Part shown: positions 1-43,828 of the stretch, piece after piece
Position numbering within the stretch: position 1 is the stretch's first letter
Layout of the letters: each line of letters starts with the position of its first letter
Assembly (NCBI RefSeq): GCF_900215295.1
Contig: NZ_OCMF01000001.1
Coordinates: 62,001-126,000, forward strand
Source: Salinimicrobium sediminis
GTDB taxonomy: Bacteria > Bacteroidota > Bacteroidia > Flavobacteriales > Flavobacteriaceae
Direction: 5' to 3'
DNA: 64,000 nt
Position numbers and translations under genes: made by a program
The notes under the pieces: generated by a model
Told to the model about the DNA's origin: nothing
Database searches by the model: none
Seen by the model: only the letters and a program-made list of their open reading frames with translations

Positions 1-378
1 ATCACATCTTTTTCCGCTCAGGGGTCCTCTGATTATTCTTATTTTCCATTGATTAGAATTTCTTACATATCTTTCCGAAATAAAACCTGCACCAAGTATA
101 TATCCTGAATATTCTCTTTTAAAGTTTCCAAGAATCGATCCTGTGAAAACGGTTTGACTTTTTTCGGGAACAACATAAATTAATTCTGCATCAAAATAAT
201 TAACAAGATCTCTGTTAAAGCTATCTCCAAAATTATTGATGCGGGCATAATAAGAATAAATTATTCTTTGGTTAAAAATTTTGGCCTTCAATTTCCTCCA
301 ATTATTTACCTGATCAAGATATAACCGGTGAAAAATAAGATAGGTAGTTTTAAAAAAAGAATATTTCCCTTTTGCCAT
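1..378 (-). CDS. Polysaccharide pyruvyl transferase family protein, C-terminus cut by window edge
   Basis: The minus strand from an ATG at 376-378 stays open for 126 codons to the window edge, so only the N-terminal part is visible. Residues 44-60 read YARINNFGDSFNRDLVN; the NNxGD pattern, and a later IIRGPLSGKR near residues 115-123, resemble the start and the RGPL(T/S) block of polysaccharide pyruvyl transferases, which move a pyruvate ketal from phosphoenolpyruvate onto a sugar. It starts 12 bases after the stop of the upstream glycosyltransferase gene, so it belongs to the same polysaccharide operon. The first 40 residues are basic and atypical for the family. The catalytic half lies outside the window. 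Family assignment is fairly good; activity is inference. Confidence 0.65.
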   Translation of the reverse strand, partial: MAKGKYSFFKTTYLIFHRLYLDQVNNWRKLKAKIFNQRIIYSYYARINNFGDSFNRDLVNYFDAELIYVVPEKSQTVFTGSILGNFKREYSGYILGAGFISERYVRNSNQWKIRIIRGPLSGKRCD

Positions 379-390
379 TCCTGAAATTTC

Positions 391-1458
391 TTATTCTATT
401 AGAACGTCGAGAACTTCCCGGTATATTTTCTCTTTTTTAAAATGTTCTGTATACAAGGTTTTATAAAAATCCCGGTCTATTCTTTTCTGACCTACAATAT
501 CAGAAATTTTATTAGCTAACGCTTCAGGATCTTCAGGATCGAAAAGAATCTCTTTGACATCCTTGTTTTCTTTATTCACAAAATCAAGGGCCCCAAATCT
601 ATCTGATACAAGAACAGGTATACCTAAAGAAAGTGCTTCAATAAAAACCAATCCAAAAGATTCAAAAAGACTAGGTAAAACGATCAGATCCATTTTTTTA
701 TAAAAATCCACCATCTGGCCTGCTGACAAAACACCTAAAAAGTTCACTTCCTCTCCAAGGTTGAGTTTGCTCACCTGCATTTCCAGGTTTTTGCGGTTAG
801 GTCCATCTCCCGCCAAATAAAATTTCAGCTCTTTCGAAGCATTAGCTTTTGCCGAGGCAAGAGCCGTTATAATTACCTGCTGATTTTTAATTATTGTAAA
901 TCTTCCGGGGCAACCTATTAAAAATTGATCGCTTGTTTCTCCTATTGCGATCAGGTTTGGTTTAACCTCCTGAATATTTGACCAAAAAGGTATAGGGATA
1001 ATTTTTGACCCTTTAACGTGAAAAACCTCCTTTAGCTCTTTCTCAAGAATACAGGAATTGACTATGATCTTGTCGGCAAGTTTATAGAACTGCCTCTTTA
1101 TCATAATTACATAATGTCCCGGATCACCGTGTTTTTTTAAAGAGTGTACCCAGACAATATTTCTTTTTATTTTCAAAATTTTACCGGCTAACATGGAGGG
1201 ATTAGCATAACTAAAATTGGAAATAATAACATCGGGAGAAATTTCATTTATGGATCTAAAAATTCTAAAATAGTCGCTTCCATAACCTCCTTTTTTTTCT
1301 ACAATAATTTCTATACTTCCAACCTTATATCTTCCCGGGTGTTCTTTTAAAGAATATACCTTTACTTCATGACCATCTTCAATTAGCTGTTGACCTAAGT
1401 CCATGAAAAAATCAGAGAGTAATCCTTTGTTGTAGGTAAAAAGAAATAAAATCTTCAT
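391..1458 (-). CDS. GT4-type glycosyltransferase
   Basis: A 355-residue GT-B fold glycosyltransferase that would transfer a sugar from a nucleotide donor to a growing glycan at the inner face of the membrane. The N-terminal Rossmann half begins MKILFLFTYN. The C-terminal half has the GRFTIIKN stretch near residue 185 and the GT4 E-x7-E signature ESFGLVFIE (E266 and E274) followed by LGIPVLVSD. Its ATG overlaps the stop of the sulfotransferase gene by one base (1458), and the pyruvyl transferase gene follows after 12 bases, so the three are probably co-translated. Donor and acceptor are unknown. Confidence 0.9.
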   Translation of the reverse strand: MKILFLFTYNKGLLSDFFMDLGQQLIEDGHEVKVYSLKEHPGRYKVGSIEIIVEKKGGYGSDYFRIFRSINEISPDVIISNFSYANPSMLAGKILKIKRNIVWVHSLKKHGDPGHYVIMIKRQFYKLADKIIVNSCILEKELKEVFHVKGSKIIPIPFWSNIQEVKPNLIAIGETSDQFLIGCPGRFTIIKNQQVIITALASAKANASKELKFYLAGDGPNRKNLEMQVSKLNLGEEVNFLGVLSAGQMVDFYKKMDLIVLPSLFESFGLVFIEALSLGIPVLVSDRFGALDFVNKENKDVKEILFDPEDPEALANKISDIVGQKRIDRDFYKTLYTEHFKKEKIYREVLDVLIE

Positions 1459-2069
1459 TACTTCCAGTTATTCTTTTTATTCCAGTAAAAGGATCTCAGA
1501 TCCCGGTATAATTTAATTTTTGCCCGTAACCTGGTATTTTTTCTACTATGAGGAAATTCTTCAGGAGGGATCCCCAAACTTAGAAAATCACACAAGGTTT
1601 TATAATCGAAATTCTTTCCTTGTTCCATAACCAAAAAATTGGGTTTATTTTGAAAGAAATCTAAAACCTTCTTATTATGGCCGGTATAGATCCTTTTGTA
1701 GGTTTCCTCGAATCCTTCAGCACAGGGAACATTATAGATCTTTCTATGCAATGGCACCCTAATGCTTCCCCAGTGCCTTACAACACTATTTATCCAGCCT
1801 TCGGTTTCTCTTAGGGTCATAATGAATTTTGCATCGGGATAAAGATCGTGCAATTCTTTATAGAACAGAGGCCAGGGCATATCCTGCACTGCATCCCAAT
1901 CTTGCAATGCTCTATGGATATATTCCTTCAGATCCTTACTATCATCAAACTTCAAAAGATTCTTATCGCCTCCATAGACCCGGTAACCCAAATTTTCCAG
2001 TGCTGTTTCAAGCGAGGTTGTGCCTGTTTTATGGAATCCTATGACAAACACTTTACTCTTCATTCCCAT
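1458..2069 (-). CDS. Sulfotransferase family protein (short type)
   Basis: A 203-residue P-loop sulfotransferase-like protein. Residues 11-20 GFHKTGTTSL form the 5'-phosphosulfate loop that binds PAPS, and R87 with S95 in LRETEGWINS fit the 3'-phosphate site. The small size and the motif resemble the Sulfotransfer_4 type of family. In a polysaccharide locus the natural inference is O- or N-sulfation of a sugar. The first ATG overlaps the upstream exostosin-like gene by 17 bases; a second Met two codons later (2063) is an equally possible start. It is one of three sulfotransferases of visibly different sequence in this locus. Confidence 0.8.
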   Translation of the reverse strand: MGMKSKVFVIGFHKTGTTSLETALENLGYRVYGGDKNLLKFDDSKDLKEYIHRALQDWDAVQDMPWPLFYKELHDLYPDAKFIMTLRETEGWINSVVRHWGSIRVPLHRKIYNVPCAEGFEETYKRIYTGHNKKVLDFFQNKPNFLVMEQGKNFDYKTLCDFLSLGIPPEEFPHSRKNTRLRAKIKLYRDLRSFYWNKKNNWK

Positions 2070-3156
2070 TCCACGAAATTTCTGTAGCTAATATAGTTTT
2101 AAAATATGTCCCAAGAGTTAAGCGTTCCTCCCATAGTTTCCTGTTATTGATCAACAGTTTCTGAAACGCCCCCGAATCCATTTTTTTATGAAAATGATTG
2201 ATCTTTTCTCCTATATAATTTATTTCGCTCTTTTCTACCCACACCACATGATCCTTCCATTCAATCTGGTTATCCAGTGGCAAACCTCCGTTGGTATTTA
2301 CATAAACAGGAATTCTTCCCATAGCCAGGGTTTCATAAAACCGCACAGAAAAATTCCCTGATCCCCTCGCGCAAAAAACGTAGTCTGAGTCTTTAATATT
2401 ATTAAAAAATTCTATTACGGTGTTATGGGAAATATCGTGCATTATACCTGCTCTATAATTCTTTCTAACTATAAAATTTGTTTTAATCCCGGGAGATTTT
2501 TTAAGAATACCCAGAACTCTACCTCTAAAGTAAGAACTCGAGAGGAATTGTTGTGGCTCTTCAATTCTCAGATCCAGGAGAGACAATATATTTTGAAGTT
2601 CAATTTTCATCAGTTCAATTGCTGCATCTACTCTTGATGTTTTAGCAAAACCACAAAACCCTACTTTGGGTTGATCAGCATAGGTTCTCATAAATATCTT
2701 GCGGGAACTGTAAAAAGTTTTTAGAGGATCCTGTATAAACGGTGGAATAACTATCTCATTGTCCTTCCTGGGGCTTTTATTAACTGCCAGTCTGAATATT
2801 AGGACATTTGGAAAAAACGGGATTTTAAGACCTATATCCCCGGCATTATAAATAAAAATTTTTTTGCCCAATTGGCTAAAGTGATCAATAAATTTTAATG
2901 CAGACTCCCTGTTCCCGGTAAGTACATAGTAATTCCAGGACATGGGAAGTATTAAAATATCCGCTAGTATGGGATCCTCAACAAAAGAAATATCACTTGA
3001 AGATATTCCATATAAACTTATTCGTTCCGAATCGGAATATCCTATATTTTTCAAAAAAGGCTTAAGAAGAGGAAACATATGGCCACGATAACCGGGATCA
3101 TAAAGCTCCTTGGGGTAAAATATTTTCGCGATCTTCATTTCCATAGTCAATTCCAT
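2053..3156 (-). CDS. Exostosin-like glycosyltransferase
   Basis: A 367-residue protein whose C-terminal half matches exostosin (GT47-like) enzymes: residues 259-286 contain YVFCARGSGNFSVRFYETLA and then MGRIPVYV, the usual C-x-x-G-x-x-x-x-x-R-x-x-E block that binds the nucleotide sugar. The N-terminal half is less conserved. The likely start is either the Met at 3156 or the one at 3138 (MKIAKIFYPKEL), which better matches the start of a globular domain. A gap of about 95 bases separates it from the FkbM gene upstream. The enzyme probably adds a sugar to the exopolysaccharide; the sugar is unknown. Confidence 0.75.
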   Translation of the reverse strand: MELTMEMKIAKIFYPKELYDPGYRGHMFPLLKPFLKNIGYSDSERISLYGISSSDISFVEDPILADILILPMSWNYYVLTGNRESALKFIDHFSQLGKKIFIYNAGDIGLKIPFFPNVLIFRLAVNKSPRKDNEIVIPPFIQDPLKTFYSSRKIFMRTYADQPKVGFCGFAKTSRVDAAIELMKIELQNILSLLDLRIEEPQQFLSSSYFRGRVLGILKKSPGIKTNFIVRKNYRAGIMHDISHNTVIEFFNNIKDSDYVFCARGSGNFSVRFYETLAMGRIPVYVNTNGGLPLDNQIEWKDHVVWVEKSEINYIGEKINHFHKKMDSGAFQKLLINNRKLWEERLTLGTYFKTILATEISWNGNEE

Positions 3157-3251: not shown

Positions 3252-4145
3252 TTAAAATTCGTGTTTTTTAATTTTAATCGCTTTACTTCTCAAAACCCTG
3301 TTTTGAACCGCTTCTTCATCCCTGATGAAAATTGTATTGAATTTTTCTTTGTTGTAGGAATTAAGGACTATTAAGCTTCTGGTAATATAATTATAAGCAT
3401 AAGGAGTAAAACCCATTTCGACAATTTCCTTAAAAATATCCTTATCATCAAAACCATACCTTTTCCCAGATCCGTTAAGTTCCATTATCAGCACATTAAG
3501 TTTTTCAGATCTCAATATTTTATTTGCTCCTTTTAGAGCAAAATATTCATATCCCTCAACATCCAGTTTAATGGCATCCGGGATTTCATTTTTTAATAAT
3601 TGATCTATAGTGGTAACCTTGACCTGGACAGAGTTAGCGTAAGAATCAGAAACAATTCTGTCCATAGTATTTCGGTCAGTTGAAAAAAATAAATTATCCT
3701 CCGAATTTGAAATACCAAGGTTTAAGGGTTGTATTAAGTGTTCCAGACGGTTTAATTTAATATTACGACACAGTTGTCTGAAAGTTTGAGGAACCGGCTC
3801 TACAGCAATTGACCTGCATTTGGTAAGACCGGAAAGGAGCATAGAATAATGCCCTAAATTTGCTCCTATATCCAAAAAGAGATCATCTTTCTTCATGAAA
3901 TGCCTCAAAAAGATTGATTCCTCGAATTCATACAGTCCGTAATAAATATTAGCAACTAAGCCTGCATCACCCTTTCTGGCATAAAATTTTAGTCCCTCGA
4001 TCCAGGATATCGTTTGTTCCTGCTTAAACCTGTTCCTTATATGGAATAACAAGTAGCGCCCTAAGGCTGCCACTGCATTTTTGCGGGTAAGGGGATGGCT
4101 CCTGAACTCTTTATACCTCTGACTAATTCTCTTTAGATTATTCAT
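3252..4145 (-). CDS. FkbM family methyltransferase
   Basis: A 297-residue S-adenosylmethionine-dependent methyltransferase of the FkbM family, which O-methylates sugars and other hydroxyl groups. Visible motifs are FLDIGANLGHYSM (residues 90-102, SAM binding), AVEPVPQTF (114-122, acidic residue for the ribose) and IKLDVEGYE (192-200, the family's KxDVEG block). It is a full-length single domain. Its start overlaps the end of the GT4 gene upstream by 8 bases, so the two are translationally coupled. It is one of three intact FkbM domains in the window, besides two decayed copies. Confidence 0.88.
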   Translation of the reverse strand: MNNLKRISQRYKEFRSHPLTRKNAVAALGRYLLFHIRNRFKQEQTISWIEGLKFYARKGDAGLVANIYYGLYEFEESIFLRHFMKKDDLFLDIGANLGHYSMLLSGLTKCRSIAVEPVPQTFRQLCRNIKLNRLEHLIQPLNLGISNSEDNLFFSTDRNTMDRIVSDSYANSVQVKVTTIDQLLKNEIPDAIKLDVEGYEYFALKGANKILRSEKLNVLIMELNGSGKRYGFDDKDIFKEIVEMGFTPYAYNYITRSLIVLNSYNKEKFNTIFIRDEEAVQNRVLRSKAIKIKKHEF

Positions 4146-6170: not shown

Positions 6171-7265
6171 TTAAGAGCAAAGCTTTACATATAGTTTTTC
6201 ATGATCCTGAATAAACTGATCCATAGAAAAATGTTCCACCGTATAATTTCTTAATGTGTGACCTAATTCCTTTCTGTAAATTTCCCCACTACCTTTTAAT
6301 TCCCTTAATTTTTTGGCAAGTTCTTTCTCATTAGAGGCTTCGAACATAAGCTCGGGGAAATCTTTCAGGACAAAATTAATTCCTGAAATAGCAGATCCCA
6401 GCACAGGGATACCCATACTCATCGCTTCCACCAAAGCCATTGGCATTCCTTCTTTCCTTCCCTCATCCAGGGTTGGAATAACATATACGTCAGCTTCGGT
6501 AATAAAAGGCCTCACGTCTTTCTGTTTCCCTTTGAATTCCACTTGCTGCTCAAGATCTAACTGACCTGTAAGTTGTCGTAATTTTTCTGAATAAGGATCC
6601 CTGTCGTTTCCCACTATCGTTAACCTTACCATCTTATCATCAAGTAGATGTACTGCCTTAATCAAAATTTCAATTCCCTTGACAGGAACAAGATTGGCCA
6701 CTGTGACAATTTTAAAAGTTTGATTTTCTTCTTTTTTTGTTGATCTGAAGATGCCCGGATTGTAATAACCGGTGTCAATACCAATTGGGATAAGCTGTTG
6801 GGATTTTTTGTAAGCAAAATAATCCCGCATTTCATGATTTATGGTGATTATGTAATTAGCCATAAAACTTCGTATTTTCCAGTGTCTGTTACCCCAACTC
6901 ATCGCTTTCTTGGTATAGATCCATTTCACACCGGCCAATTTTGCTGCCAGGGCTTCGGTCCAGTCACTACTCCAGTGCCAGGAGTGGATAAGGTCAAAAT
7001 GATTTTCTTTAAAAAAAGCGATTACAGGCTGCAGTCTTTTAATTAATGTAATATATGGCCGGTAATCGACATTCGTATTCATAATAATATTAGGAACGTT
7101 CAGCTTCTCTACTTCCTTAAAAAAATCACCTCCGTTATGTTCACAGGCTATGCAAATTTCAAACCTGTTCTTATCCAGGCCTTTGACCAGATCATACACC
7201 ACCTTGCCGCTACCGGCAGTATCAAAATTAGGAATGGTAAATAAGATCTTAATTCGCCGTTCCAT
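6171..7265 (-). CDS. GT4-type glycosyltransferase
   Basis: A 364-residue GT-B glycosyltransferase. The N-terminus ILFTIPNFDTAGSGKVVYDL has the glycine-rich loop of GT4 enzymes; the C-terminal half has TVANLVPVKGIEILI and EGMPMALVEAMSMGIPVL, the E-x7-E nucleotide-sugar block. The gene overlaps the asparagine-synthase-like gene upstream by 17 bases and ends one base before the sulfotransferase start. It would add one residue to the repeat unit of the polysaccharide. Sugar donor unknown. Confidence 0.9.
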   Translation of the reverse strand: MERRIKILFTIPNFDTAGSGKVVYDLVKGLDKNRFEICIACEHNGGDFFKEVEKLNVPNIIMNTNVDYRPYITLIKRLQPVIAFFKENHFDLIHSWHWSSDWTEALAAKLAGVKWIYTKKAMSWGNRHWKIRSFMANYIITINHEMRDYFAYKKSQQLIPIGIDTGYYNPGIFRSTKKEENQTFKIVTVANLVPVKGIEILIKAVHLLDDKMVRLTIVGNDRDPYSEKLRQLTGQLDLEQQVEFKGKQKDVRPFITEADVYVIPTLDEGRKEGMPMALVEAMSMGIPVLGSAISGINFVLKDFPELMFEASNEKELAKKLRELKGSGEIYRKELGHTLRNYTVEHFSMDQFIQDHEKLYVKLCS

Positions 7266-8646
7266 GATTGAATTTTTTATTCCAAACTGATAAAGTCAGC
7301 AAGGTACTTACTGAATGGGAGAATTGCACCCCATCCTCCTCTTTGAATTTCTTATAAAATTCTTTGACTATTGTTGGAGGGATAAATTCCTTAAATGAAT
7401 CTTCATAAAGATAGTTAAGCAAATTCTGCTCATTTTTACTTCCCAGGAATTGCAGTTCCCAATTACGCTGTATATATTTTTTTCCAACCAGGGCAGCAGA
7501 TTCCCTTTGAACTTTACTTATGACTCTATAGGGCAAATTATAAGGTACTTTATTAAAGGGGTAATTATTTAAATTAAAAGGTTTATGAGCTTCCCATGTA
7601 ATTTTTCCCAGGTCCTTATGCTGTTTTATATAAGCAAGCTGTAAACGCCGGTTTGCGAGATAAGCTTCAGGTATTTCACAGATGAATTCACACATTCTGT
7701 CATCATAATAAGGCAGACTTACAGGATTCGCACTGGCAAAAATTGCAAGATTGGTTGAGGTCCACCGGGGGGCCCAGTACATAGATTTAAAAGCTCTTAT
7801 CCTCGCACTGGAGTTTTCTATTTTGATAGCTGAAAGTAAATCTGATATTCTTTCTTTAATATATACCTCAAAGCGGCCTTCAAGACCCCAGGCTTCCCAA
7901 AGAGAAACCGCCAGTTCCATTCCGCTTTTCTTTACCACGCCTTTTAACAGGTGAGATACCTCATCTTTTTCTGTTAAATCTTCCGGAGCCCCTTTGTCGA
8001 ATAATACATCTCCCCAGTGCCCAAGGGAAAATATTCCATGCATATTCTTTAATTCCGGCAGCACCGCCATTTGCCGTGGATGTGTGAATTCAGAAAAGCA
8101 TTTATTGATCTGTGCAAGCTCATCGAGCTCCTGCCACAGATAACCTGCAGGAATTTGAAATTCCTTAAATGGGAATTTGCAAACTTCTGCAACTTTCCTC
8201 GCTATTTTACTTTCGGGGTACCCACCGGAAAAAGAATAACTATAGCTCGAAACTTCATTTCTTAACCTCAGTAAGGCCAATGCCTGACTCCTGCTATCCA
8301 GTCCTCCTGACAAGGGAAGGATCACGGGGGAATCCTGCACCTGATCTTTTACAATGTGTTCAAATAAGCTTGTAAATTCAGCTAAAGCCTGCTCAAAGCT
8401 AATTTGCCGGGGCTGGTAATACCATTCGAAACGGGAAGCGCTATTTATTAAGCAACCATGATCATCCAGTGAAGTAATGGTGCCGGGCCTCATTACTTTT
8501 TCATCTTTCCAATAGGTATCCTGATCCAGAAAAAAGCCGATAGCTGCAAATATACAAATGGCTTTAAGATCCGGCTCAGAGGGGGCATCCTTCACCTTAT
8601 AAAAGGAAGGAAAAACAGGAATAATGCCGGTGCTAATCTCCTTCAT
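7249..8646 (-). CDS. Asparagine synthase-like ATP-dependent amide-forming protein lacking the glutaminase domain
   Basis: A 465-residue protein with the PP-loop SGGLDSR (residues 113-119) that binds ATP in asparagine synthetases and related amidotransferases. Asparagine synthetase B has an N-terminal Ntn glutaminase domain with a catalytic Cys at position 2; here the second residue is Lys and only about 110 residues precede the PP-loop, so no working glutaminase is apparent. Such AsnB-like genes occur in polysaccharide loci, where some are proposed to amidate uronic acids; that role is inference here. It overlaps the GT4 genes on both sides (4 and 17 bases), so it belongs to the glycan operon. 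Confidence 0.7.
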   Translation of the reverse strand: MKEISTGIIPVFPSFYKVKDAPSEPDLKAICIFAAIGFFLDQDTYWKDEKVMRPGTITSLDDHGCLINSASRFEWYYQPRQISFEQALAEFTSLFEHIVKDQVQDSPVILPLSGGLDSRSQALALLRLRNEVSSYSYSFSGGYPESKIARKVAEVCKFPFKEFQIPAGYLWQELDELAQINKCFSEFTHPRQMAVLPELKNMHGIFSLGHWGDVLFDKGAPEDLTEKDEVSHLLKGVVKKSGMELAVSLWEAWGLEGRFEVYIKERISDLLSAIKIENSSARIRAFKSMYWAPRWTSTNLAIFASANPVSLPYYDDRMCEFICEIPEAYLANRRLQLAYIKQHKDLGKITWEAHKPFNLNNYPFNKVPYNLPYRVISKVQRESAALVGKKYIQRNWELQFLGSKNEQNLLNYLYEDSFKEFIPPTIVKEFYKKFKEEDGVQFSHSVSTLLTLSVWNKKFNHGTAN

Positions 8647-9824
8647 ATTTTACTCCTTTGTAAAACTTTTTTATATAAGCTTTCCATACCCCGGATCATC
8701 TGATTACTGGAATGCTGGTTCTCCACTTTTTCCCTTGCAGCTTTTCGAACAATTTCAATTGATTCTTCAGGCAAGGTGGTAAATAATTCGATTTGTCCTG
8801 CTAAAGCCGCCGGATCCCGTGTAGGCACGACCCATCCCTCCCTGTCATGAGCTATAAGTTCCTCAACACCCCCACAGGAAGTGCTAATTACCGGAATTCC
8901 AAGGACCATCGCTTCCACCAATACATTAGGTATCCCTTCTTCCAAACTTGAAACGATGAGTAGATCAGCTTCTGTCATAAGCTCGTAAACCTTCTTCTGA
9001 GGTAGTTTTCCTAAAATATTCACCCTCTCCTCCAGTTTGTACATATTTGTCAAAAATAGGATTTCCTCATTACCCTTACCTCCTATAATAGTTATTTCAA
9101 ATTCAACATCTTTTTTAAACAGGATTGCGCAGGCATGGATTGCATCGTGTAAACCTTTTTTCCAGTGTGGCCTGCCTACTGTAATAAGTTTCAGCTTCTC
9201 ATTTCTGGAATAATTTTCCTGAAATTGAAAACCTTGAAGGTCCAGTCCTGTGTAAACAACTTCATCTAACTTTGCAGGTGAATTCCATATCTTATCTCCC
9301 TCCTGAGATATGGCCTTAGAGACGGAATGAAAGCCTGATAATTTAGGGAAGATAGAGCTCAGTTTTTGAAAATAGCTATTATTAACAAATGGCTTTACGT
9401 TTATCTGATATCCCCGCTGACTAAGAACAACGGGATATTTTCCCTCATTTATCACCTCTTCCAACACCTCCAGAAGAGCCGGCCATTGAACATGAATAAT
9501 GTCCGGTTCTAATTCATTGAGCAGAACCTTTAAATTCCTCTTTTGCAGGTTTTTTCTATTGCCGAGAACAATTTTTTTAAAAGTGAAAAAAGTTGCAAAA
9601 ATGTTATAATCAAAAGCAATTTTAAGGCTTTGAAAAATTAACTGAATGTTATTTTGACTACTTCCAAGAGAAAGATATTTTAAATTTTCTTTGGATGGAC
9701 TTATGTTTCCTCCAAAGTGCAGGAGGTAAATACTATGTCCCTCTTCAGCTAAACCTTCCATTAATCTTCTTATAAAGACCGGGGGCTGCAAACTACCTTC
9801 AAATACTACAATTTTTAAAGGCAT
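8643..9824 (-). CDS. GT4-type glycosyltransferase
   Basis: A 393-residue GT-B glycosyltransferase. The C-terminal half has TVGRPHWKKGLHDAI near residue 217 and EEGIPNVLVEAMVLGIPVI, in which the two Glu residues lie seven apart as expected for GT4. The N-terminal half begins LKIVVFEGSLQPPVFIRRL. Its ATG shares one base with the stop of the upstream GT2 gene (TAATG arrangement at 9822-9826), and its end overlaps the asparagine-synthase-like gene by four bases. This indicates strong translational coupling. Sugar unknown. Confidence 0.9.
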   Translation of the reverse strand: MPLKIVVFEGSLQPPVFIRRLMEGLAEEGHSIYLLHFGGNISPSKENLKYLSLGSSQNNIQLIFQSLKIAFDYNIFATFFTFKKIVLGNRKNLQKRNLKVLLNELEPDIIHVQWPALLEVLEEVINEGKYPVVLSQRGYQINVKPFVNNSYFQKLSSIFPKLSGFHSVSKAISQEGDKIWNSPAKLDEVVYTGLDLQGFQFQENYSRNEKLKLITVGRPHWKKGLHDAIHACAILFKKDVEFEITIIGGKGNEEILFLTNMYKLEERVNILGKLPQKKVYELMTEADLLIVSSLEEGIPNVLVEAMVLGIPVISTSCGGVEELIAHDREGWVVPTRDPAALAGQIELFTTLPEESIEIVRKAAREKVENQHSSNQMIRGMESLYKKVLQRSKI

Positions 9825-14774: not shown

Positions 14775-14861
14775 AAAACAAATATACTGATAACGGCAAA
14801 GGAGGAAGCCGGAGTTTAAGTTAAATAGAGGAATAGACAATTAATCTGATGTCCAATGAAG

Positions 14862-23675: not shown

Positions 23676-23706
23676 CCTCTGAAATTAGAATATTAAATCA
23701 ATAAGT

Positions 23707-24567
23707 TTAAACAGTATCTATAAAATTCTTTTCAGTCCTGTTAAAAAATACAAGGCCTATGAAAAACAGACCAAAAGATATGGCCAATGTATAAAAAAAA
23801 GAATTCCAGCTAAAGATACCTGTATCCAGCAGCATATACCGGAAACCTTCAATAATATGAGTTAAAGGATTGTACTGTACAATCCAGGCATATTCCGGCA
23901 TTTCCTTTTGTACTTCAGCGAGAGGATAAGGCACCGCAGATATGTATAATAAAAGGGATGTGGCGAAACCTACTAAAACAGACAAATCTCTATATTTAGT
24001 GGTGAAAGCAGAAATGATCATTCCTAATCCCAATCCCATTGTGGCCATCATTAATATATATATGGGAAACAGTAATAAGTTAGTATTAGGTGTAACCTTA
24101 ATTCCTGTATAAAGCACATACAGATAAGCGATAAGTAAAACCCCTAACTGTATCCCAAACTTAAAGAGATTAGTAATTACATTGGAAAGAGGCATTATAA
24201 CCCTTGGGAAATATACCTTGCCAAATATAGCTGCGTTAGATTTAAAGGTATTGGAAGTACCGGTTAAACATTGGGAAAAATAGTTCCATGCGGTAATCCC
24301 GGTTAGATTAAACAAAAATGGTGGTATTTCGCCAGTAGGAACTTTGGCTATATTGTTAAAAACTAAAGTAAAAGTTATAGCTGTAAATAATGGCTGGATA
24401 AAATACCACAGAGGCCCCAGGATGGTCTGCTTATAGACGGTTACAATATTTCTTTTTACAAAAAGTATAAGTAAATCGCGATAACGCCATATTTCTTTAA
24501 AATTCAGATCTATGATCTTACGCTTTGGAGAAATCTCATAAAGCCATCCCTCTTCATTTTCTGTCAT
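23707..24567 (-). CDS. Polysaccharide ABC exporter, permease (Wzm-like), copy 1
   Basis: A 286-residue ABC-2 type permease with about six hydrophobic segments, for example LWYFIQPLFTAITFTLVF and GVLLIAYLYVLYTGI. It carries the usual cytoplasmic N-terminal amphipathic helix and NIVTVYKQTILGPLWY before the first membrane span, and ends in NRTEKNFIDTV. It would form the membrane channel with the Wzt-like ATPase encoded next. It is closely similar along its whole length to copy 2 at 29210-30070, including the ending. Confidence 0.92.
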   Translation of the reverse strand: MTENEEGWLYEISPKRKIIDLNFKEIWRYRDLLILFVKRNIVTVYKQTILGPLWYFIQPLFTAITFTLVFNNIAKVPTGEIPPFLFNLTGITAWNYFSQCLTGTSNTFKSNAAIFGKVYFPRVIMPLSNVITNLFKFGIQLGVLLIAYLYVLYTGIKVTPNTNLLLFPIYILMMATMGLGLGMIISAFTTKYRDLSVLVGFATSLLLYISAVPYPLAEVQKEMPEYAWIVQYNPLTHIIEGFRYMLLDTGIFSWNSFFYTLAISFGLFFIGLVFFNRTEKNFIDTV

Positions 24568-27874: not shown

Positions 27875-29155
27875 TTATATATCGGTTTTCAATTTCACTT
27901 CTGAAGGAAAATAAATTTGTCCCCAGTTTTTTTTCCAGTTCACAAAATATTCATTCCTTTCCTTCATTTCTATCTCAAAACTAATGGCTTCAAAGGCATG
28001 ATCTACTTCAGATAAGTGGGCATTTTTCAGGCTTCCTTTTGAGATGGTCAGGTTAATATAATAAGAGCCCGGTGCCAGGTTATGATCTGCAATCGTTAAA
28101 TTTATGGTACTTTCCTCCTGATGAACATAAATCTCTTCAGAGAAAAAAGAACCAATTTCCATATCTGAAAAGTTCATGATGGTACCGGTCAGGCAAACTG
28201 GAAAGGTGATATTCTTGTTCTTCCGTATCAGTACATCAAAACACATCCTGCTTCTTGTGTGAAGATCATTATGGGATGAACTTATACTCAAAAGCTCTAA
28301 GGCTCTGGAATTTTTATGCCGCCTATGAGACTCATTTATTTTATTTTGAATCTGCGGTATTCTCCTGTAATTAGAAAGATAATGATCAACACTTTCCCTG
28401 GCCTCGCCTGCAAAATCGACTTCACCATTGTGCAGCACCAGACCCCGTTGGCATAAGCTTTTCACGGCATCCATATTATGGCTCACAAAGAGGATGGTTC
28501 GCCCCGAATCACTGGAAAGGGTATTCATTTTTCCAATAGCTTTCTTTTGAAACTCGGCATCCCCCACGGCCAGCACTTCATCTACCACCAGGATATCAGG
28601 TTCTAAATGCGCGGCAACCGCAAAGCCCAATCTCACGGTCATACCGCTACTGTATCTCTTAACCGGAGTATCTATATAACGTTCACAACCCGAAAAATCA
28701 ATAATTTCATCAAGCTTGGTTTTAATTTCACGTTTAGTCATCCCTAAAACCGCGCCGTTCATAAATATGTTTTCTCTACCCGTAAGCTCCCTGTGAAAAC
28801 CTGTACCAACTTCCAATAGTGAAGAAATTCGACCTCTTACCTCAATAGATCCCGTGGTGGGCGCAGTGATCCTGGAAAGGATCTTTAATAAAGTGGATTT
28901 ACCTGCACCGTTCTTTCCAATAATCCCCAGGATCTCTCCAGGTTTTACTTCAAAATTTATATCCTTTAATGCCCATACGTAATCACCGGAAGCCTTCGTG
29001 TCCTGCCTGTTCTTCTCTCCAATTTTAATAAAGGGATCTTCTTTTCCTCTTTTAAGATACCACCAACGTTTTAGATCATGTCTAATATTACCGGTACCTA
29101 TCACACCCAGACGGTATTGCTTTGAGATATTTTCTGCTATTAAAATAGATTTCAT
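27875..29155 (-). CDS. Polysaccharide ABC exporter, ATP-binding protein (Wzt-like), copy 2
   Basis: A 426-residue ATPase, paralogue of the product of 22389-23675. Walker A is GKNGAGKST (residues 80-88), the YSSGM signature and VVDEVLAVGDAEF are the same, and the N-terminal 260 residues match copy 1 almost word for word. The C-terminal domain from about residue 265 is different in sequence from copy 1 and keeps a beta-rich character (for example INLTIADHNLAPGSYYINL). In Wzt such domains read out the end of the glycan chain, so the two copies may serve different chains or chain ends. It is 54 bases from the permease gene. Confidence 0.9.
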   Translation of the reverse strand: MKSILIAENISKQYRLGVIGTGNIRHDLKRWWYLKRGKEDPFIKIGEKNRQDTKASGDYVWALKDINFEVKPGEILGIIGKNGAGKSTLLKILSRITAPTTGSIEVRGRISSLLEVGTGFHRELTGRENIFMNGAVLGMTKREIKTKLDEIIDFSGCERYIDTPVKRYSSGMTVRLGFAVAAHLEPDILVVDEVLAVGDAEFQKKAIGKMNTLSSDSGRTILFVSHNMDAVKSLCQRGLVLHNGEVDFAGEARESVDHYLSNYRRIPQIQNKINESHRRHKNSRALELLSISSSHNDLHTRSRMCFDVLIRKNKNITFPVCLTGTIMNFSDMEIGSFFSEEIYVHQEESTINLTIADHNLAPGSYYINLTISKGSLKNAHLSEVDHAFEAISFEIEMKERNEYFVNWKKNWGQIYFPSEVKLKTDI

Positions 29156-29209
29156 TTAAAAATTTTGAGTCTCTTCTTGATTATAGGCTTACCCGTAATA
29201 TTCTGGTAT

Positions 29210-30070
29210 TTAAACAGTGTCAATAAATATCTTTTCAGACCTATTAAATAAAACTAAACCGGTCAAAAATAAAATTATTGAAAAGACAAAACTAAATACG
29301 AACCAGGCCCAGTTAAATGTTCCGGTGTTCAGAATAATATATCTAAAGCCCTCCATCACATGGGCTAATGGATTGTAATTAACAATCCATGCATATTCAG
29401 GAATTTTATTTTCCACTTCTTTAAGCGGATAAGGAACTGCTGAAATATATAATAATAAAGAGACTGCGAATCCTACTAAGAAACCAAAATCCCTGTATTT
29501 TATAGTCACTGATGAAACAATCAAGCCTAAACCCAAGCCTGATAAAGCCATTATTAGGATATAAACAGGTAATAAGAATAATTTTAAATTTGGATGAATA
29601 TGAAACCCCCCGGAAAGTAAAAAAATATACACGACTATCACTATACCCAGCTGAATGCCAAATTTAAAAAGCATTGTAATAACGCTGGCAATTGGGGTTA
29701 TTATACGTGGGAAATAAACCTTGCCAAAAATTTCCGCATTTGCCCGAAAGATATTTGAAGTACCAGTTAGACACTGAGAGAAATAATTCCAAGCGGTGAT
29801 CCCAACCAGATTGAACAGGAATGGAGGAACCTTACCAGTAGGAATTTCTGCAATATTATTGAAAACCAGGGTAAAGGTTAATGCGGTTAATAATGGCTGA
29901 ATTAAATACCATAGCGGACCAAGAATGGTTTGCTTATAAACTGTAATTATATCGCGTCTAACAAAAAGAAATAAGAGATCCCTGTACTTCCATATCTCTG
30001 GGAAATTTAGGTCTAGGAGTTTTCTCTTAGGCGTTATTCGATAATGTACTTGGTTACTAACTTTCCCCAA
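29210..30070 (-). CDS. Polysaccharide ABC exporter, permease (Wzm-like), copy 2
   Basis: A 286-residue ABC-2 type permease of exactly the same length as copy 1 and with the same landmarks, IITVYKQTILGPLWYLIQP, TGITAWNYFSQC-like GITAWNYFSQC and the ending SEKIFIDTV. About six membrane segments are visible. It pairs with the ATPase encoded immediately downstream. The stronger drift of DNA sequence than of protein between the two copies points to an old duplication or separate acquisition rather than a recent tandem copy. Confidence 0.9.
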   Translation of the reverse strand: MGKVSNQVHYRITPKRKLLDLNFPEIWKYRDLLFLFVRRDIITVYKQTILGPLWYLIQPLLTALTFTLVFNNIAEIPTGKVPPFLFNLVGITAWNYFSQCLTGTSNIFRANAEIFGKVYFPRIITPIASVITMLFKFGIQLGIVIVVYIFLLSGGFHIHPNLKLFLLPVYILIMALSGLGLGLIVSSVTIKYRDFGFLVGFAVSLLLYISAVPYPLKEVENKIPEYAWIVNYNPLAHVMEGFRYIILNTGTFNWAWFVFSFVFSIILFLTGLVLFNRSEKIFIDTV

Positions 30071-33572: not shown

Positions 33573-33588
33573 TAAACCAATAGTGATA

Positions 33589-34521
33589 ATGAACACCTTA
33601 AAATTAAACTTTTCTGACTTTTGGCCAGGATTTAATAAGCACGATAATTATTTTATAAATTTATTAAGAAAGTATTATGATGTTCAAATTGTTGAGGATC
33701 CAGAGGTACTTATTTATTCCTGTTATAGCTTCAATTTTTTAAAATATAATTGTCATAAGATATTTTTTGCCCCTGAGAATGTTCGTCCAAATTACAACGA
33801 ATGTGATTTCAGTTTCAGTTTTGATTATAGTGAGGCTAAAGGGAATAATTATAGGCTTCCATTATTTATCCTCTACGGCAATGTGGAGAAATTAATTGAG
33901 GAAAAAAATATTGATCAGATTTCTTCCGAAAAGAATAAGTTTTGCAATATGTTGGTAAGTAATCCCCGGGGAAAAGAGAGAAATCAATTTTTTCATCTTC
34001 TATCAGAATACAAAAAAGTAGATTCGGGAGGTAAATTTCTCAACAATATTGGATCTCGGGTCAAAAACCGGTTCCACTTTATAGAGCCGTACAAATTCAC
34101 TTTAGCCTTTGAAAATTCTTCTTATCCTGGCTATACTACAGAGAAAATTTTTGAACCTATGAAAGTTAATTCAATTCCTATATATTGGGGAAACCCTAAG
34201 GTGGACACCGATTTTAATCCAAAAAGTTTTGTGAATGTACATGATTATGACAATTTCAATAATGCCATTGATGCAATTAAAGAAATTGATCAAAACGAGA
34301 ACATATATAAAATTTATCTAAAAGAGCCATATTTTAAGGGAAATGAAATACCAAAAGAGTTCACCAATGAAGTTGTATTAGGTAAATTTATTGATGTAAT
34401 TTCTTCTTTTAAGAAAACAAATCCTGTTTTAAATAGAAGAGACAAGCTATTTCTAGGCTACTCAAACATGGTTAGAAAACGTTTTCTGAATAAGTTCATT
34501 TTTGAGAAACGTATATATTGA
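33589..34521 (+). CDS. GT10 alpha-1,3-fucosyltransferase-like
   Basis: A protein of 310 residues from the ATG at 33589. It matches the bacterial alpha-1,3/4-fucosyltransferase family GT10: FTLAFENSSYPGYTTEKIF (residues about 170-188) is the hallmark donor-binding block, followed by PIYWGNP. Upstream PENVRPNYNECDFSFSFDY also fits the family. It would transfer L-fucose from GDP-fucose, and the same locus encodes Gmd and Fcl, which make that donor. It is on the opposite strand to most of the locus and sits between two decayed FkbM genes. The C-terminal ends of this family are variable, consistent with the basic tail here. A perfect 12-bp inverted repeat follows its stop. Confidence 0.85.
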   Translation: MNTLKLNFSDFWPGFNKHDNYFINLLRKYYDVQIVEDPEVLIYSCYSFNFLKYNCHKIFFAPENVRPNYNECDFSFSFDYSEAKGNNYRLPLFILYGNVEKLIEEKNIDQISSEKNKFCNMLVSNPRGKERNQFFHLLSEYKKVDSGGKFLNNIGSRVKNRFHFIEPYKFTLAFENSSYPGYTTEKIFEPMKVNSIPIYWGNPKVDTDFNPKSFVNVHDYDNFNNAIDAIKEIDQNENIYKIYLKEPYFKGNEIPKEFTNEVVLGKFIDVISSFKKTNPVLNRRDKLFLGYSNMVRKRFLNKFIFEKRIY

Positions 34522-39364: not shown

Positions 39365-39381
39365 AAAACCTACCTTAAAGA

Positions 39382-40212
39382 ATGGAAGTAAAGAATATAT
39401 TATTTGAAACTGAGATAAAGCTCCTACAGGAGCTGCGTTTAATTCATGCCATTGCTGAAACCGGTCATAAGATAAATGTAAAACCATCAGAAAAATTTAA
39501 GTTAGAACCTCTTGAGAAAAAATTTAATTTTTCCGTAGGCACAGGATCAGAGGATGATTTTCCAATTGCCAATCTTGTAAAGATTGATCATAAAACACCA
39601 AAAGTCAGTATAGGAAATATTACCAGAACACTAATTTTTCCTCACTCCATAGTAACCTATTGCAAATCTCTATGGAAGGGGGAACGCACGTATAGATTTG
39701 TCTTCACAGGATGGATGAGTTATAAGCGAAAAAAAGAATTAGAGCATTGGATTAGCGAAAAATGGGGAATTAAACAGAGTATTCACAGTCACAAAGAATA
39801 TTTACCCAAAATAAAAAATCATTTCCGTCTCCTGCTTGGTTTACCTGAAATTGAAATTAGTTATAATAGAGAATTAAGAATCATACCCTCCGGGAAAGGG
39901 AGAAAATTTCCCGATAAAGCCTGGGATGAGGAATACTATCGGACTTTAGCAAATTCAAAATTTGTACTATGCCCCAGCGGTAACAGTGTATGGACTTATA
40001 GATTCTTTGAAGCCATTCTTTGTGGTGCTATCCCGGTGGTTGAGGAAACATGTGAAGCTTATATCGGCTTCACCTATTTTTCATTCAATGATCCCATAGA
40101 AGAAATGAACTGGGATCAAAAAATCGTCGATGAAAACTTTAAACTTTGTCTGGAGAGAATAACGGTTGCACCGGAAATATCAAAGCGAGAACTGGAGAAA
40201 ATTTTAACCTAA
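39382..40212 (+). CDS. Exostosin-like glycosyltransferase
   Basis: A 276-residue protein. The C-terminal part has SKFVLCPSGNSVWTYRFFEA (about residues 192-211) and LCGAIPVVEE, the exostosin/GT47-type nucleotide-sugar block, similar in layout to the product of 2053-3156. The N-terminal 110 residues are poorly conserved. It is transcribed away from wza, from its own promoter at 39335-39364, and ends 69 bases before the outer-membrane protein gene that runs toward it. Probably a transferase of the polysaccharide; sugar unknown. Confidence 0.7.
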   Translation: MEVKNILFETEIKLLQELRLIHAIAETGHKINVKPSEKFKLEPLEKKFNFSVGTGSEDDFPIANLVKIDHKTPKVSIGNITRTLIFPHSIVTYCKSLWKGERTYRFVFTGWMSYKRKKELEHWISEKWGIKQSIHSHKEYLPKIKNHFRLLLGLPEIEISYNRELRIIPSGKGRKFPDKAWDEEYYRTLANSKFVLCPSGNSVWTYRFFEAILCGAIPVVEETCEAYIGFTYFSFNDPIEEMNWDQKIVDENFKLCLERITVAPEISKRELEKILT

Positions 40213-41036: not shown

Positions 41037-41440
41037 TAAATTTGCTCTAATCTAACGGGGAAGATAGAAATTTATTTTGTGAAGTGTTCAACTCAGTATG
41101 CAGTAGGCAGTGATTAGTAGCAGTTAAATTGGCAAAAAAGCTCTTAGCCTAAAAGGTTGCAGGTTGCAGGCTTTCGAACAGTTGCCGGTCAACCGTTGCC
41201 TGTTGCCGGTTGTGAAATGCGTATTGCGGATTACATTTTATTATTATTCCGGCATCTGATATTCACTCTGGCGCTTCCACCCTTTAGTCCCGATAGCAAT
41301 CGGGAGGGGCAGAGAAGCGCGGGTAAATTATAAAATCACTACTCACTACTCCTACTCCTAACTATGGACTATCTACTGAAATATGGGTTGTTAATTCTAA
41401 ATTCTACTTGGTGCCTAGAATTTAGAATTTGGTGCTTTAT
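41037..41440. other. Non-coding stretch built of short repeated words
   Basis: It contains near-repeats of GCAGTNGGCAGT and GTTGCAGG words, one copy of the hairpin element at 41271-41323, and a TCTAAATTCTAC/AGAATTTAGAATTTGG stretch (41395-41432) that recurs elsewhere in this window. No gene is supported. Confidence 0.6.
41271..41323. repeat. Intergenic hairpin element, family A, copy 1
   Basis: GCGCTTC at one end pairs with GAAGCGC at the other, and inside TCCCGAT pairs with ATCGGGA around a short loop. Related copies lie at 43829-43880, 43976-44025 and 47546-47585. Confidence 0.8.
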
Positions 41441-42361: not shown

Positions 42362-42477
42362 TCGCCCAATTTAATGTTACTGTTTATGGTTGTTTTTTGA
42401 AGCCTTAGAATTTGGGATTTGGTGCCTGGAATTTTTTACTTACTGATCACTGAGCACCGAACACTGAACACTTATTT

Positions 42478-43611
42478 TCATTCTCCATTATAATTCAGCG
42501 TCCTATGTCCGCCGTCTCTCAGGTACTTTTCTCTGCGGAAGAGTTCCACATCTGCTGTCACCATCTCCTCTACAAGATCCTGCAGACTATGTTTAGGTTC
42601 CCAACCCAATTCTTTCCTACATTTGGAAGCATCACCAATTAACAGATCCACCTCTGTAGGTCGATGATACTTCGGATCAACCTGAAGCACAATAGTTCCC
42701 GGGGCTACCTGAAAATCGGAATTGTTACACTCCACTACTTTTGCCACTTCCCTTTCTCCCTTTCCAGTAAATTCCAGGGTGATACCCACGCAGCTAAAAG
42801 CCATCCGCACCAGCTCTCTTACGGAAGTAGTTTTTCCTGTAGCGATCACATAATCATCCGGCCTGTCCTGCTGCAGCATAAGCCACATAGCTTCTACATA
42901 ATCCCTGGCATGTCCCCAGTCCCTTTGCGCATCCAGATTTCCCAGGAAAAAAACTTCCTGCATCCCCAAAGCAATTCGGGCTACTGCCCGGGTGATCTTT
43001 CGGGTGACAAAAGTTTCTCCCCTTAAGGGGGATTCGTGGTTAAACAAGATACCATTGCAAGCGAACATGTCATAGGCTTCCCGGTAGTTAACAGTGATCC
43101 AATAAGCGTATAATTTCGCCACTCCATAAGGGCTTCGGGGATAGAACGGAGTTTTCTCCGTCTGCGGCACCTGTTGCACCAACCCATATAATTCTGAAGT
43201 CGATGCCTGGTAGACCTTTGTCTTCTTTGTAAGACCCAACAGCCTCACCGCCTCTAAAATTCTCAGGGTGCCAAGTCCGTCAACGTTGGCTGTATATTCC
43301 GGGGTATCAAAGCTCACCTTTACATGAGACATGGCGCCGAGGTTATAGATCTCATCGGGCTGCACTTCCTGGATGATCCGCGTAAGATTCATCGAATCGC
43401 TAAGATCCCCGTAATGAAGTTTAAACCGAATATCCTTTTCATGCGGATCCTGGTACAGATGATCTACCCTTTCTGTATTAAAAAGACTGGATCTCCTCTT
43501 GATCCCATGTACCACATATCCTTTTTCCAGTAGAAGTTCTGCTAAATAAGCCCCATCCTGCCCGGTGATGCCGGTGATGAGTGCGGTTTTTTGAGAAGTT
43601 GTAGTTTCGAT
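42478..43611 (-). CDS. gmd: GDP-mannose 4,6-dehydratase, start codon unusual
   Basis: A short-chain dehydrogenase/reductase that makes GDP-4-keto-6-deoxymannose, the first step to GDP-fucose. Motifs include the NADP loop [19 protein letters not shown]-type [23 protein letters not shown] and [10 protein letters not shown] (Tyr-x3-Lys). The GTG at 43513-43515 would remove the NADP loop, which is plainly present upstream in frame, so the true start must be earlier. But there is no ATG, GTG or TTG between the loop and the in-frame stop at 43654-43656. The start used here is an ATC at 43609-43611; ATC at 43623 and ATT at 43629 are alternatives. See the findings. Confidence 0.93.
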
Positions 43612-43639
43612 GCTGTTACAGATATTAATTAACTGAAAA

Positions 43640-43647
43640 CAAATATA
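43640..43647 (-). promoter_or_regulatory. Bacteroidota -7 box upstream of gmd
   Basis: TATATTTG (TAnnTTTG) on the minus strand, so transcription would start near 43634 and give a leader of about 20 bases before the proposed ATC start at 43611. No TTG is seen at the usual distance upstream. Confidence 0.45.
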
Positions 43648-43828
43648 AGTTTTTATAATGGTCGGTCTTGTGGTTCCCTAATTTTCTGTTAGCTGTTGGC
43701 TGTTGACTGTTAGTTTTTAGCCTTTAGCTAATAGCCATTCGTTTTTCTGTTCGACGGAGGAAGTTAAAGCCTCTGTTCTTGAAATAATTATTAAAATAAC
43801 CAGTCGAACGAACTGCAGAAAAATTCTT

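What the first reader, a model, noticed from the sequence alone, without database searches (positions are those of the whole stretch)
1..43656. A sulfated, methylated, fucose-containing polysaccharide locus of unusual size
Seen: within 44 kb there are three sulfotransferases with clear PAPS loops, six methyltransferase domains (three FkbM, three others), gmd and fcl, a GT10 fucosyltransferase, at least 16 GT2/GT4 glycosyltransferase domains, two exostosin-like proteins, a likely pyruvyl transferase and two ABC exporters. Known: Gmd and Fcl make GDP-fucose and GT10 uses it. Inference: the product is a branched fucosylated glycan that is sulfated, like the fucoidans this class of bacteria usually degrade. 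Sulfated glycans made by Bacteroidota are little described.
Basis: partly seen in the sequence, partly recalled or inferred. Interest (0 to 1): 0.75.

Follow-up and report, generated by a model that had tools for sequence, protein, structure and literature searches.

The report
Sulfated surface-sugar locus, two exporters
This is the variable surface-sugar gene cluster (O-antigen type) of a Flavobacteriaceae-like bacterium; it very probably adds sulfate and methyl groups to sugars, and related clusters suggest that sulfate may in some bacteria mark the finished end of a sugar chain for export.

Summary
The inventory is confirmed: three sulfotransferases (one just under Pfam cut-offs), six methyltransferase-like domains, 16 GT2/GT4 domains, two exostosin-like proteins, one GT10, gmd/fcl and two Wzm-Wzt exporters; the locus runs about 11 kb left of the window. 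Two PAPS-making gene sets lie elsewhere, in a second polysaccharide locus. Size is ordinary: six relatives span 37-51 kb, with shared ends and exchanged insides, like a serotype locus. A fucoidan-like product is unsupported. The exporters are near-twins except for unrelated C-terminal (cap-reading) domains, so two differently ended glycans are more likely than one polymer. New lead: in 96 Wzt loci, 17 of 20 same-strand sulfotransferases are the first same-strand gene 3' of Wzt, the slot that methyltransferases also prefer (13 of the 17 come from one family; 4 of 7 without it). SULF_C homologs sit there in Winogradskyella, Psychroflexus, Motilimonas and Photobacterium. Sulfate as an export cap is thus a testable new cap chemistry; but in this window SULF_C is four genes upstream of Wzt2, whose C-terminal domain is not of the SULF_C-linked type.

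The parts
1..378 (-). N-terminal part of a polysaccharide pyruvyl transferase (gene continues left of the window)
   Evidence: PF04230 on the part outside the window; open frame across the edge
391..1458 (-). GT4 glycosyltransferase
   Evidence: PF00534
1458..2069 (-). sulfotransferase A (Sulfotransfer_4)
   Evidence: PF17784 E 1e-32; PDB relatives SgdX2 and sulfotransferases; 94% identical ortholog in G010
2053..3156 (-). exostosin-like GT47
   Evidence: PF03016 26.3 bits, under cut-off 33.4
3252..4145 (-). FkbM methyltransferase 1
   Evidence: PF05050
4138..5364 (-). GT4 glycosyltransferase
   Evidence: PF00534
5312..6169 (-). sulfotransferase B (weak match)
   Evidence: PF00685 21.2 bits vs cut-off 22, PF13469 20 bits vs 27; no PDB match; 91% ortholog in G010
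6171..7265 (-). GT4 glycosyltransferase
   Evidence: PF13692
7249..8646 (-). asparagine-synthase-like protein
   Evidence: PF00733 E 6e-10
8643..9824 (-). GT4 glycosyltransferase
   Evidence: PF00534
9824..10822 (-). GT2_4/GT92-like glycosyltransferase
   Evidence: PF13704, PF01697
10822..11736 (-). GT2 glycosyltransferase
   Evidence: PF00535
11737..12555 (-). class I methyltransferase
   Evidence: PF08241
12558..14840 (-). two GT4 glycosyltransferases (12558-13586, 13635-14840)
   Evidence: PF13692, PF00534
14862..18577 (-). four GT2 glycosyltransferases
   Evidence: PF00535
18748..20040 (-). GT4 glycosyltransferase
   Evidence: PF13692
20037..21734 (-). GT2-FkbM fusion (FkbM domain 2)
   Evidence: PF05050 in residues 377-531; PF00535 in residues 6-126 under cut-off
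21731..22378 (-). first gene 3' of Wzt1; methyltransferase-like by eye
   Evidence: no Pfam or NCBIfam hit
22389..24567 (-). exporter 1: Wzt1 (22389-23675) and Wzm1 (23707-24567)
   Evidence: PF00005 + PF14524; PF01061
24695..27824 (-). PMT_2 protein, methyltransferase (26176-26880) and GT2 (26877-27824)
   Evidence: PF13231, PF13489, PF00535; shared with G010
27875..30070 (-). exporter 2: Wzt2 (27875-29155) and Wzm2 (29210-30070)
   Evidence: PF00005 + PF14524 under cut-off; PF01061
30192..31019 (-). GT2_5 glycosyltransferase of cassette 2
   Evidence: PF13712
31033..31839 (-). FkbM methyltransferase 3 of cassette 2
   Evidence: PF05050
32015..32842 (-). sulfotransferase C, heparan-sulfotransferase type, of cassette 2
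   Evidence: PF00685 E 2e-17; PDB 3-OST/NDST relatives
33583..34521 (+). GT10 alpha-1,3-fucosyltransferase-like
   Evidence: PF18025, PF00852
35968..39228 (-). Wzc-like (35968-38436) and Wza-like (38440-39228)
   Evidence: PF13807/PF13614 and PF02563; Wzc orthologs at 81-96% in 9 same-genus genomes
39382..40212 (+). exostosin-like GT47
   Evidence: PF03016
41441..42361 (-). fcl (GDP-fucose synthase-like epimerase)
   Evidence: PF01370
42478..43600 (-). gmd (GDP-mannose 4,6-dehydratase); frame open upstream of the listed GTG
   Evidence: PF16363; open frame with Rossmann motif

Best explanation
The region is most of one chromosomal, serotype-like surface-polysaccharide locus (about 55 kb, ABC-transporter/O-antigen type) that makes sulfated and O-methylated glycans. 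Shown by sequence: the gene content, ends that recur in relatives (ABC-F, OMP, Wza, Wzc and often fcl on one side; Wzy_C and a GT4 on the other) and the exchanged inside. Inferred: cytoplasmic GT2/GT4 enzymes build chains on a lipid carrier; sulfotransferases A and B, using PAPS made by the cysNDCQ sets on contig C7, and the FkbM/other methyltransferases modify sugars; two Wzm-Wzt pumps export chains. Because the pumps are near-twins except for unrelated C-terminal domains, I read them as exporters for two different chain ends. The second pump comes as an exchangeable cassette (SULF_C - FkbM - GT2_5 - Wzm2 - Wzt2; G010 carries another cassette at the same place). My mechanism for it: the cassette adds a terminal sugar carrying methyl and/or sulfate, and Wzt2 exports chains so ended. 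Sub-probabilities: sulfated glycan from this locus 0.8; two differently ended glycans 0.5; sulfate from SULF_C part of the terminal cap in this organism 0.25; sulfate cap somewhere among the related Wzt-linked loci 0.45.
For: Domains. PAPS supply. The genome's three PF13469 matches are in the locus. SULF_C aligns with heparan 3-O- and N-sulfotransferases over its first ~120 residues, including the PAPS loop, the KE..FF stretch and the RNPxDRAxS stretch. Relatives: Wzc orthologs in 9 of 11 same-genus genomes (the other two are 74-75% complete); interior exchanged, G010 syntenic except cassette 2 and GT10. Wzt1/Wzt2 63% identical over 316 aligned positions from residue 1, Wzm1/Wzm2 68%, C-terminal domains without similarity (E 0.56). 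Cap slot: Pfam PF13469 in 15 of 57 first same-strand genes 3' of Wzt; for the fourth gene (53 proteins) no sulfotransferase family is among the 25 of 41 families shown. Pooled, home-made HMMs: 17 of 20 same-strand sulfotransferases at +1 in 96 loci; 4 of 7 without family f7, P 0.0016; FkbM 8 of 17 and other methyltransferases 8 of 14 at +1. A scan with SULF_C plus its Psychroflexus homolog gave that Psychroflexus locus back and three new loci (Winogradskyella, Motilimonas, Photobacterium); in 3 of 3 new ones the homolog directly follows Wzt, overlapping its end by 4-11 bases. Aeromonas salmonicida A450 lists Wzt, then a sulfotransferase-domain protein, then WbbB, and its authors saw no such residue in the O-antigen structure (PMC4483657, passages), as a terminal-only sulfate would predict.
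Against: In the window SULF_C is the fourth gene upstream of Wzt2, not +1. Wzt2's C-terminal domain resembles those of G003 and G011 (41-42%), not the SULF_C-linked ones. SULF_C homologs are often not beside Wzt: 4 of 18 hits in the order of Motilimonas, the query included, and 3 of the 19 examined in the window's order besides the window (22 hits, 20 with a locus). The pooled statistic rests mostly on family f7 (13 of its 15 loci), probably one ancestral operon; those loci were fetched after two f7 loci (left out of the count) were known to carry one; in 9 of the 13 an opposite-strand ORF lies between Wzt and the sulfotransferase. C-terminal domains track the class of the +1 gene (19 of 29 nearest neighbours, P 0.0025, without f7), but the ATPase part does so weakly too (16 of 31, P 0.039), and this set includes loci picked for sulfotransferases, so shared ancestry is not excluded. 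No chemistry exists; substrates of all three sulfotransferases are unknown; sulfotransferase B is under Pfam cut-offs, has no PDB match, and its structure model failed (pLDDT 34.5). PAPS genes are not in this locus.
Confidence: 0.7

Rival explanations
1. Sulfation is internal only: the three sulfotransferases decorate repeat-unit sugars of one or two polysaccharides, caps are methyl groups (FkbM and other methyltransferases beside Wzt), and the position of sulfotransferases next to Wzt in other genomes is operon history.
For: Sulfotransferases A and B lie deep among the glycosyltransferases. The gene 3' of Wzt1 is methyltransferase-like by eye, followed by a GT2-FkbM fusion. Known caps in the passage read are methyl, (methyl)phosphate and a sugar such as Kdo (PMC9445017). 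In Vibrio KMM 8419 the sulfated capsule's model puts sulfate on a repeat-unit rhamnose (PMC11641403, passages).
Against: Position +1 holds sulfotransferases in several lineages, and A. salmonicida A450 has one after Wzt but no sulfate seen in the O-antigen structure.
Confidence: 0.35
2. One reading: one large, branched, fucosylated and sulfated polysaccharide resembling fucoidan.
For: gmd, fcl, GT10 and sulfotransferases are together in one region.
Against: Only one GT10, outside the operon on the other strand and without counterpart in the syntenic G010 locus; fcl at this edge recurs in five of ten relatives with other insides; two exporters with different C-terminal domains.
Confidence: 0.07
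3. The sulfotransferases act on non-glycan substrates (lipids, proteins or small molecules) and only happen to lie in the locus.
For: Eight same-genus genomes carry another sulfotransferase in a conserved neighbourhood poor in glycosyltransferases. Sulfotransferase A's best PDB relatives are not named as glycan enzymes.
Against: All three lie in one run of glycan genes; SULF_C's PDB relatives are mostly heparan sulfotransferases; PAPS gene sets also sit in a polysaccharide locus.
Confidence: 0.07

Closest known systems
ABC-transporter-dependent O-antigen loci with cap-reading Wzt (E. coli O8/O9a WbdD type; Aquifex aeolicus WzmWzt)
   Same: Wzm plus Wzt with a C-terminal domain, methyltransferases at or near the gene 3' of Wzt, cytoplasmic glycosyltransferases (PMC9445017 passages; WbdD paper PMC3482155 in a search listing only)
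   Different: Two Wzm-Wzt pairs with unrelated C-terminal domains in one locus; sulfotransferases present; 'sulf' occurs 0 times in the main texts of PMC9445017 and PMC11231755
Aeromonas salmonicida A450 wbsalmo O-antigen cluster
   Same: Sulfotransferase-domain gene listed next to Wzt (PMC4483657, passages)
   Different: Another phylum (recalled); order Wzt - sulfotransferase - WbbB; no such residue seen in the O-antigen structure by its authors
Sulfated capsule clusters of Vibrio sp. KMM 8419 and Cobetia marina KMM 1449
   Same: Sulfotransferases and an ABC exporter in a polysaccharide cluster (Vibrio: PMC11641403 passages); Cobetia: sulfated capsule with genomic insight (PMC11766843, search listing only)
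   Different: Vibrio carries second copies of cysC, cysN and cysD inside the cluster; here the PAPS genes are in another locus; there the sulfated structure was solved
Winogradskyella ludwigii HL116 locus (L102)
   Same: Wzc - Wzm - Wzt with a SULF_C homolog at 46% (best segment), two more sulfotransferase-labelled genes and an AsnB-like gene
   Different: SULF_C directly 3' of Wzt, and a different Wzt C-terminal domain

Membership tests
ABC-transporter-dependent (Wzm-Wzt) O-antigen/capsule locus | Wzm and Wzt genes, Wzt with C-terminal carbohydrate-binding domain | tested here: met
   PF01061, PF00005 and PF14524 for exporter 1; PF14524 under cut-off (19.7 of 30.4 bits) for exporter 2
ABC-transporter-dependent (Wzm-Wzt) O-antigen/capsule locus | Locus at a conserved place with exchanged interior among relatives | tested here: met
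   nine same-genus genomes fetched; G009 has no glycosyltransferase island there, G004 is cut by a contig end, and for G003 the far end was not reached
ABC-transporter-dependent (Wzm-Wzt) O-antigen/capsule locus | Product attached to lipid A core or another anchor | not testable with these tools
   A Wzy_C protein (ligase or polymerase) is in the left part
Sulfated polysaccharide gene cluster | Sulfotransferases with PAPS motifs in the cluster | tested here: met
   sulfotransferase B below cut-off
Sulfated polysaccharide gene cluster | PAPS synthesis genes in the same cluster (hallmark named in PMC11641403) | tested here: not met
   APS kinase and the cysN/D/Q-like genes lie on contig C7, not here; PAPS supply in the genome is met
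Fucoidan-like polyfucose | Several fucosyltransferases | tested here: not met
   One GT10 among the scanned proteins of the locus
Fucoidan-like polyfucose | Fucose-rich sulfated product | not testable with these tools
   Needs sugar analysis
Cap-dependent export with sulfate as the cap (proposed) | Sulfotransferase as first same-strand gene 3' of Wzt | tested here: not met
   Not met in the window (SULF_C is the fourth gene upstream of Wzt2); met in 17 of 96 other Wzt loci, 13 of them from one family
Cap-dependent export with sulfate as the cap (proposed) | Wzt C-terminal domain of the sulfotransferase-linked type | tested here: inconclusive
   Wzt2 is not of the SULF_C-linked type; Wzt1 is 23-30% identical to several f7 domains that have a sulfotransferase at +1

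The most novel reading that the evidence does not exclude
Sulfate is an export cap. In many ABC-exported O-polysaccharides the sulfotransferase beside Wzt puts one sulfate (alone or with a methyl group) on the non-reducing end, which stops elongation and is read by the Wzt C-terminal domain. The window carries two export cassettes with different end codes, one of them with a heparan-type sulfotransferase and an FkbM methyltransferase. Such a sulfate occurs once per chain and would be missed by repeat-unit analysis, as may have happened in A. salmonicida A450.
Probability: 0.35. Interest if true: 0.78.

Novelty: new variant of a known kind. Interest (0 to 1): 0.55.

Why it matters
If sulfate caps exist, they add a chemistry to the short list of chain-end signals (methyl, phosphate, Kdo) that set O-antigen length and license export, and they would explain a sulfotransferase gene beside Wzt whose product was not found. 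The window and G010 form a natural pair: nearly the same locus with one exchanged cassette. The case also shows that members of this Bacteroidota genus are equipped to make, not only degrade, sulfated glycans: PAPS-making gene sets lie inside or beside polysaccharide genes in this genome and in G002, G005 and G006.

Tried and rejected
Unusual size: rejected after comparison with the six of ten fetched relatives in which both anchors were seen. Fucoidan analogy: rejected as unsupported. Structure of sulfotransferase B: the AlphaFold job on a two-sequence alignment gave pLDDT 34.5, so no fold search was run; a search for more relatives found only G273 at 28-29% among 296 genomes, the own one included, so no second job was started. 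NCBIfam gave no family for 9 of 10 key proteins. SULF_C as an exclusive Wzt partner: rejected, since most homologs are not beside Wzt. The organism's name was not reached: the one genome-contig scan may leave out the window's own record; a genome of the same family (G271) matches the Psychroflexus longus contig by length and place, hence Flavobacteriaceae by recall. Labels of genes in relatives come from home-made HMMs seeded from the window and fetched loci, which miss many methyltransferases; Pfam checks are. Wzt places fetched: 60 of the 107 non-own places (a 61st, G271, was already held); 3 of the 60 were picked because of known sulfotransferases and left out of the statistics. 40 of the 49 places outside the order were fetched; 1 of them (L202) was dropped for lack of a Wzt label. 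Opposite-strand sulfotransferase-like genes (several in f7, one in L206) are outside the 17-of-20 count. The null spreads each gene evenly over the same-strand slots of its locus, Wzm left out. In the cap-domain test, L103 (same locus as L084) was dropped, f7 and the G010 Wzt1 ortholog were left out, and five relatives' classes were set by hand.


Full report
What is there. The window is G000:C8:62001-126000 of a 3.48 Mb genome in 8 contigs. Sulfotransferase B scores just under the Pfam cut-offs. From 391 to 32842 the 31 genes run on one strand with gaps of at most 175 bases and many overlaps. The locus goes on to the left, to about C8:50817, with the rest of a pyruvyl transferase, more GT4s and a Wzy_C protein.

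Sulfate supply. PF13469 finds three sulfotransferases in the genome at E 0.01, all in this locus. APS kinase occurs twice, on C7, each copy in a set cysQ-DUF2061-cysC-cysD-cysN (assigned by eye and recall, except APS kinase by PF01583 and cysD by PF01507). The two sets are 85, 92 and 71% identical in cysN, cysD and cysC and lie in a second polysaccharide locus with a weak further sulfotransferase (PF00685 21.0 bits, cut-off 22), a GT10-like gene 42% identical to the window's and a Wzx-like gene (by eye). A separate CysH-like protein on C4 carries CC and CxxC motifs that by recall mark APS reductases; if so, CysC is not needed for assimilation and the PAPS made is for sulfation. This last step is inference.

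Relatives. Wzc of the window has 81-96% orthologs in nine of eleven same-genus genomes; the other two are 74-75% complete. I fetched the surroundings in these nine and in G022 of another genus. The ends recur and the interior is mostly different; G009 has no glycosyltransferase island there, G004 is cut by a contig end, and in G003 and G005 the far anchor was not reached. G010 is the exception: it shares nearly all genes at 68-96% identity, except that the cassette SULF_C - FkbM3 - GT2_5 - Wzm2 - Wzt2 and the GT10 are replaced by another Wzm-Wzt pair with other genes. From Wzc to the conserved GT4 the stretch measures 44.9 kb here (Wzc end, GT4 start; the 42.4 kb printed was taken to the start of Wzc) and 37.4-51.0 kb in the six others that could be measured, so the size is ordinary. 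fcl at this edge recurs in G003, G006, G007, G010 and G011, gmd in G003 and G010. Sulfotransferases are labelled in the orthologous locus of G010, G002 and G022, and by eye in G005. PF13469 matches occur in 31 of 60 genomes, own included. Of the 17 same-genus places outside this locus, 8 have glycan or PAPS genes around them, 8 are one conserved neighbourhood poor in glycosyltransferases and 1 is another such neighbourhood.

Two exporters. Wzt1 and Wzt2 are 63% identical over 316 aligned positions from residue 1 and Wzm1/Wzm2 68%, but the C-terminal domains show no similarity. In known systems this domain reads the chain end; PMC9445017 (passages) names methyl, (methyl)phosphate or a sugar such as Kdo as caps. 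I infer two chain ends, hence probably two glycans or two glycoforms.

Sulfotransferases beside Wzt. SULF_C is of the heparan 3-O-/N-sulfotransferase type. The genome-contig scan used SULF_C and its homolog in G271, which I already knew to follow a Wzt. It returned that locus (Psychroflexus longus) and three new ones, Winogradskyella ludwigii, Motilimonas sp. and Photobacterium aquae; in 3 of 3 new ones the homolog directly follows a Wzt, overlapping its end. I then took Wzt as the anchor. Among 57 loci of the order not individually picked for sulfotransferases, Pfam finds PF13469 in 15 of 57 first same-strand genes 3' of Wzt; for the fourth gene (53 proteins) no sulfotransferase family is among the 25 of 41 families shown. 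With 39 further loci from other orders and classes, 17 of 20 same-strand sulfotransferases within the fetched flanks are at +1. Thirteen of these come from family f7 (13 of its 15 loci counted), whose loci I fetched after two of its members had shown the arrangement; in 9 of the 13 an opposite-strand ORF, some of them sulfotransferase-like themselves, lies in between. Without f7, 4 of 7 are at +1 (P 0.0016). FkbM (8 of 17) and other methyltransferases (8 of 14) prefer the same slot, so +1 behaves as the slot of a chain-end enzyme. G022 has a 503-residue protein at +1 that reads as sulfotransferase plus FkbM (by home-made HMM and by eye). Without f7, C-terminal domains of Wzt resemble each other by +1 class (19 of 29 nearest neighbours, P 0.0025), somewhat more than the ATPase parts do (16 of 31, P 0.039).

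Limits. In the window itself SULF_C is the fourth gene upstream of Wzt2, and Wzt2's domain is like those of G003 and G011, not like the SULF_C-linked ones. In the order of Motilimonas only 4 of 18 SULF_C hits, the query included, follow a Wzt; in the window's order 3 of the 19 other loci examined are next to Wzm-Wzt (22 hits, 20 with a locus). The cap idea is therefore a lead from comparative data, not a finding about this strain.

Literature. In the held library, 'Wzt' with 'sulfotransferase' gives four papers. One was opened (passages): A. [quoted passage not shown] That is what a single terminal sulfate would look like in repeat-unit analysis, though it is also what an inactive or unrelated enzyme would give. 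Sulfated capsules with gene clusters are known from Vibrio (PMC11641403, passages) and Cobetia (PMC11766843, listing only). In the listings no title or abstract start describes a sulfate cap; most subscription papers are not in the library.

Verdict. The locus is a member of a known kind (ABC-exported, variable surface polysaccharide) with an uncommon feature: two exporters with different chain-end domains, one of them in an exchangeable cassette with a sulfotransferase and a methyltransferase.

Noticed in passing
window 42478-43600: The gmd frame is open and holds its Rossmann motif, but no ATG, GTG or TTG precedes that motif after the upstream stop; in G010 the listed frame begins at the same inner place. 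The start codon is unclear.
   Followed up: partly
L008 3475-18198 (G000 C7:344475-359198): Second polysaccharide locus with two cysQ-DUF2061-cysC-cysD-cysN sets, a weak sulfotransferase, a GT10-like gene and a Wzx-like gene.
   Followed up: partly
L086, L089, L092, L094, L096, L097, L098, L099: A sulfotransferase of 297-331 aa in a conserved neighbourhood poor in glycosyltransferases in eight same-genus genomes; no such PF13469 match in the window's genome.
   Followed up: no
L061 (G022 C22:86724): 503-residue protein with a sulfotransferase-like N-terminal and an FkbM-like C-terminal half, directly 3' of Wzt.
   Followed up: no
L152-L166 (family f7): Wzm - Wzt - sulfotransferase - GT2 arrangement in 13 of 15 loci, in 9 of them with an opposite-strand ORF in between that is sulfotransferase-like in several.
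   Followed up: partly
L035 (G010 C20:15399): In G010 a 275-aa protein with an HIRGTDR stretch, by eye like an alpha-1,2-fucosyltransferase, stands in the replaced stretch, on the strand opposite to the operon, as the window's GT10 does.
   Followed up: no
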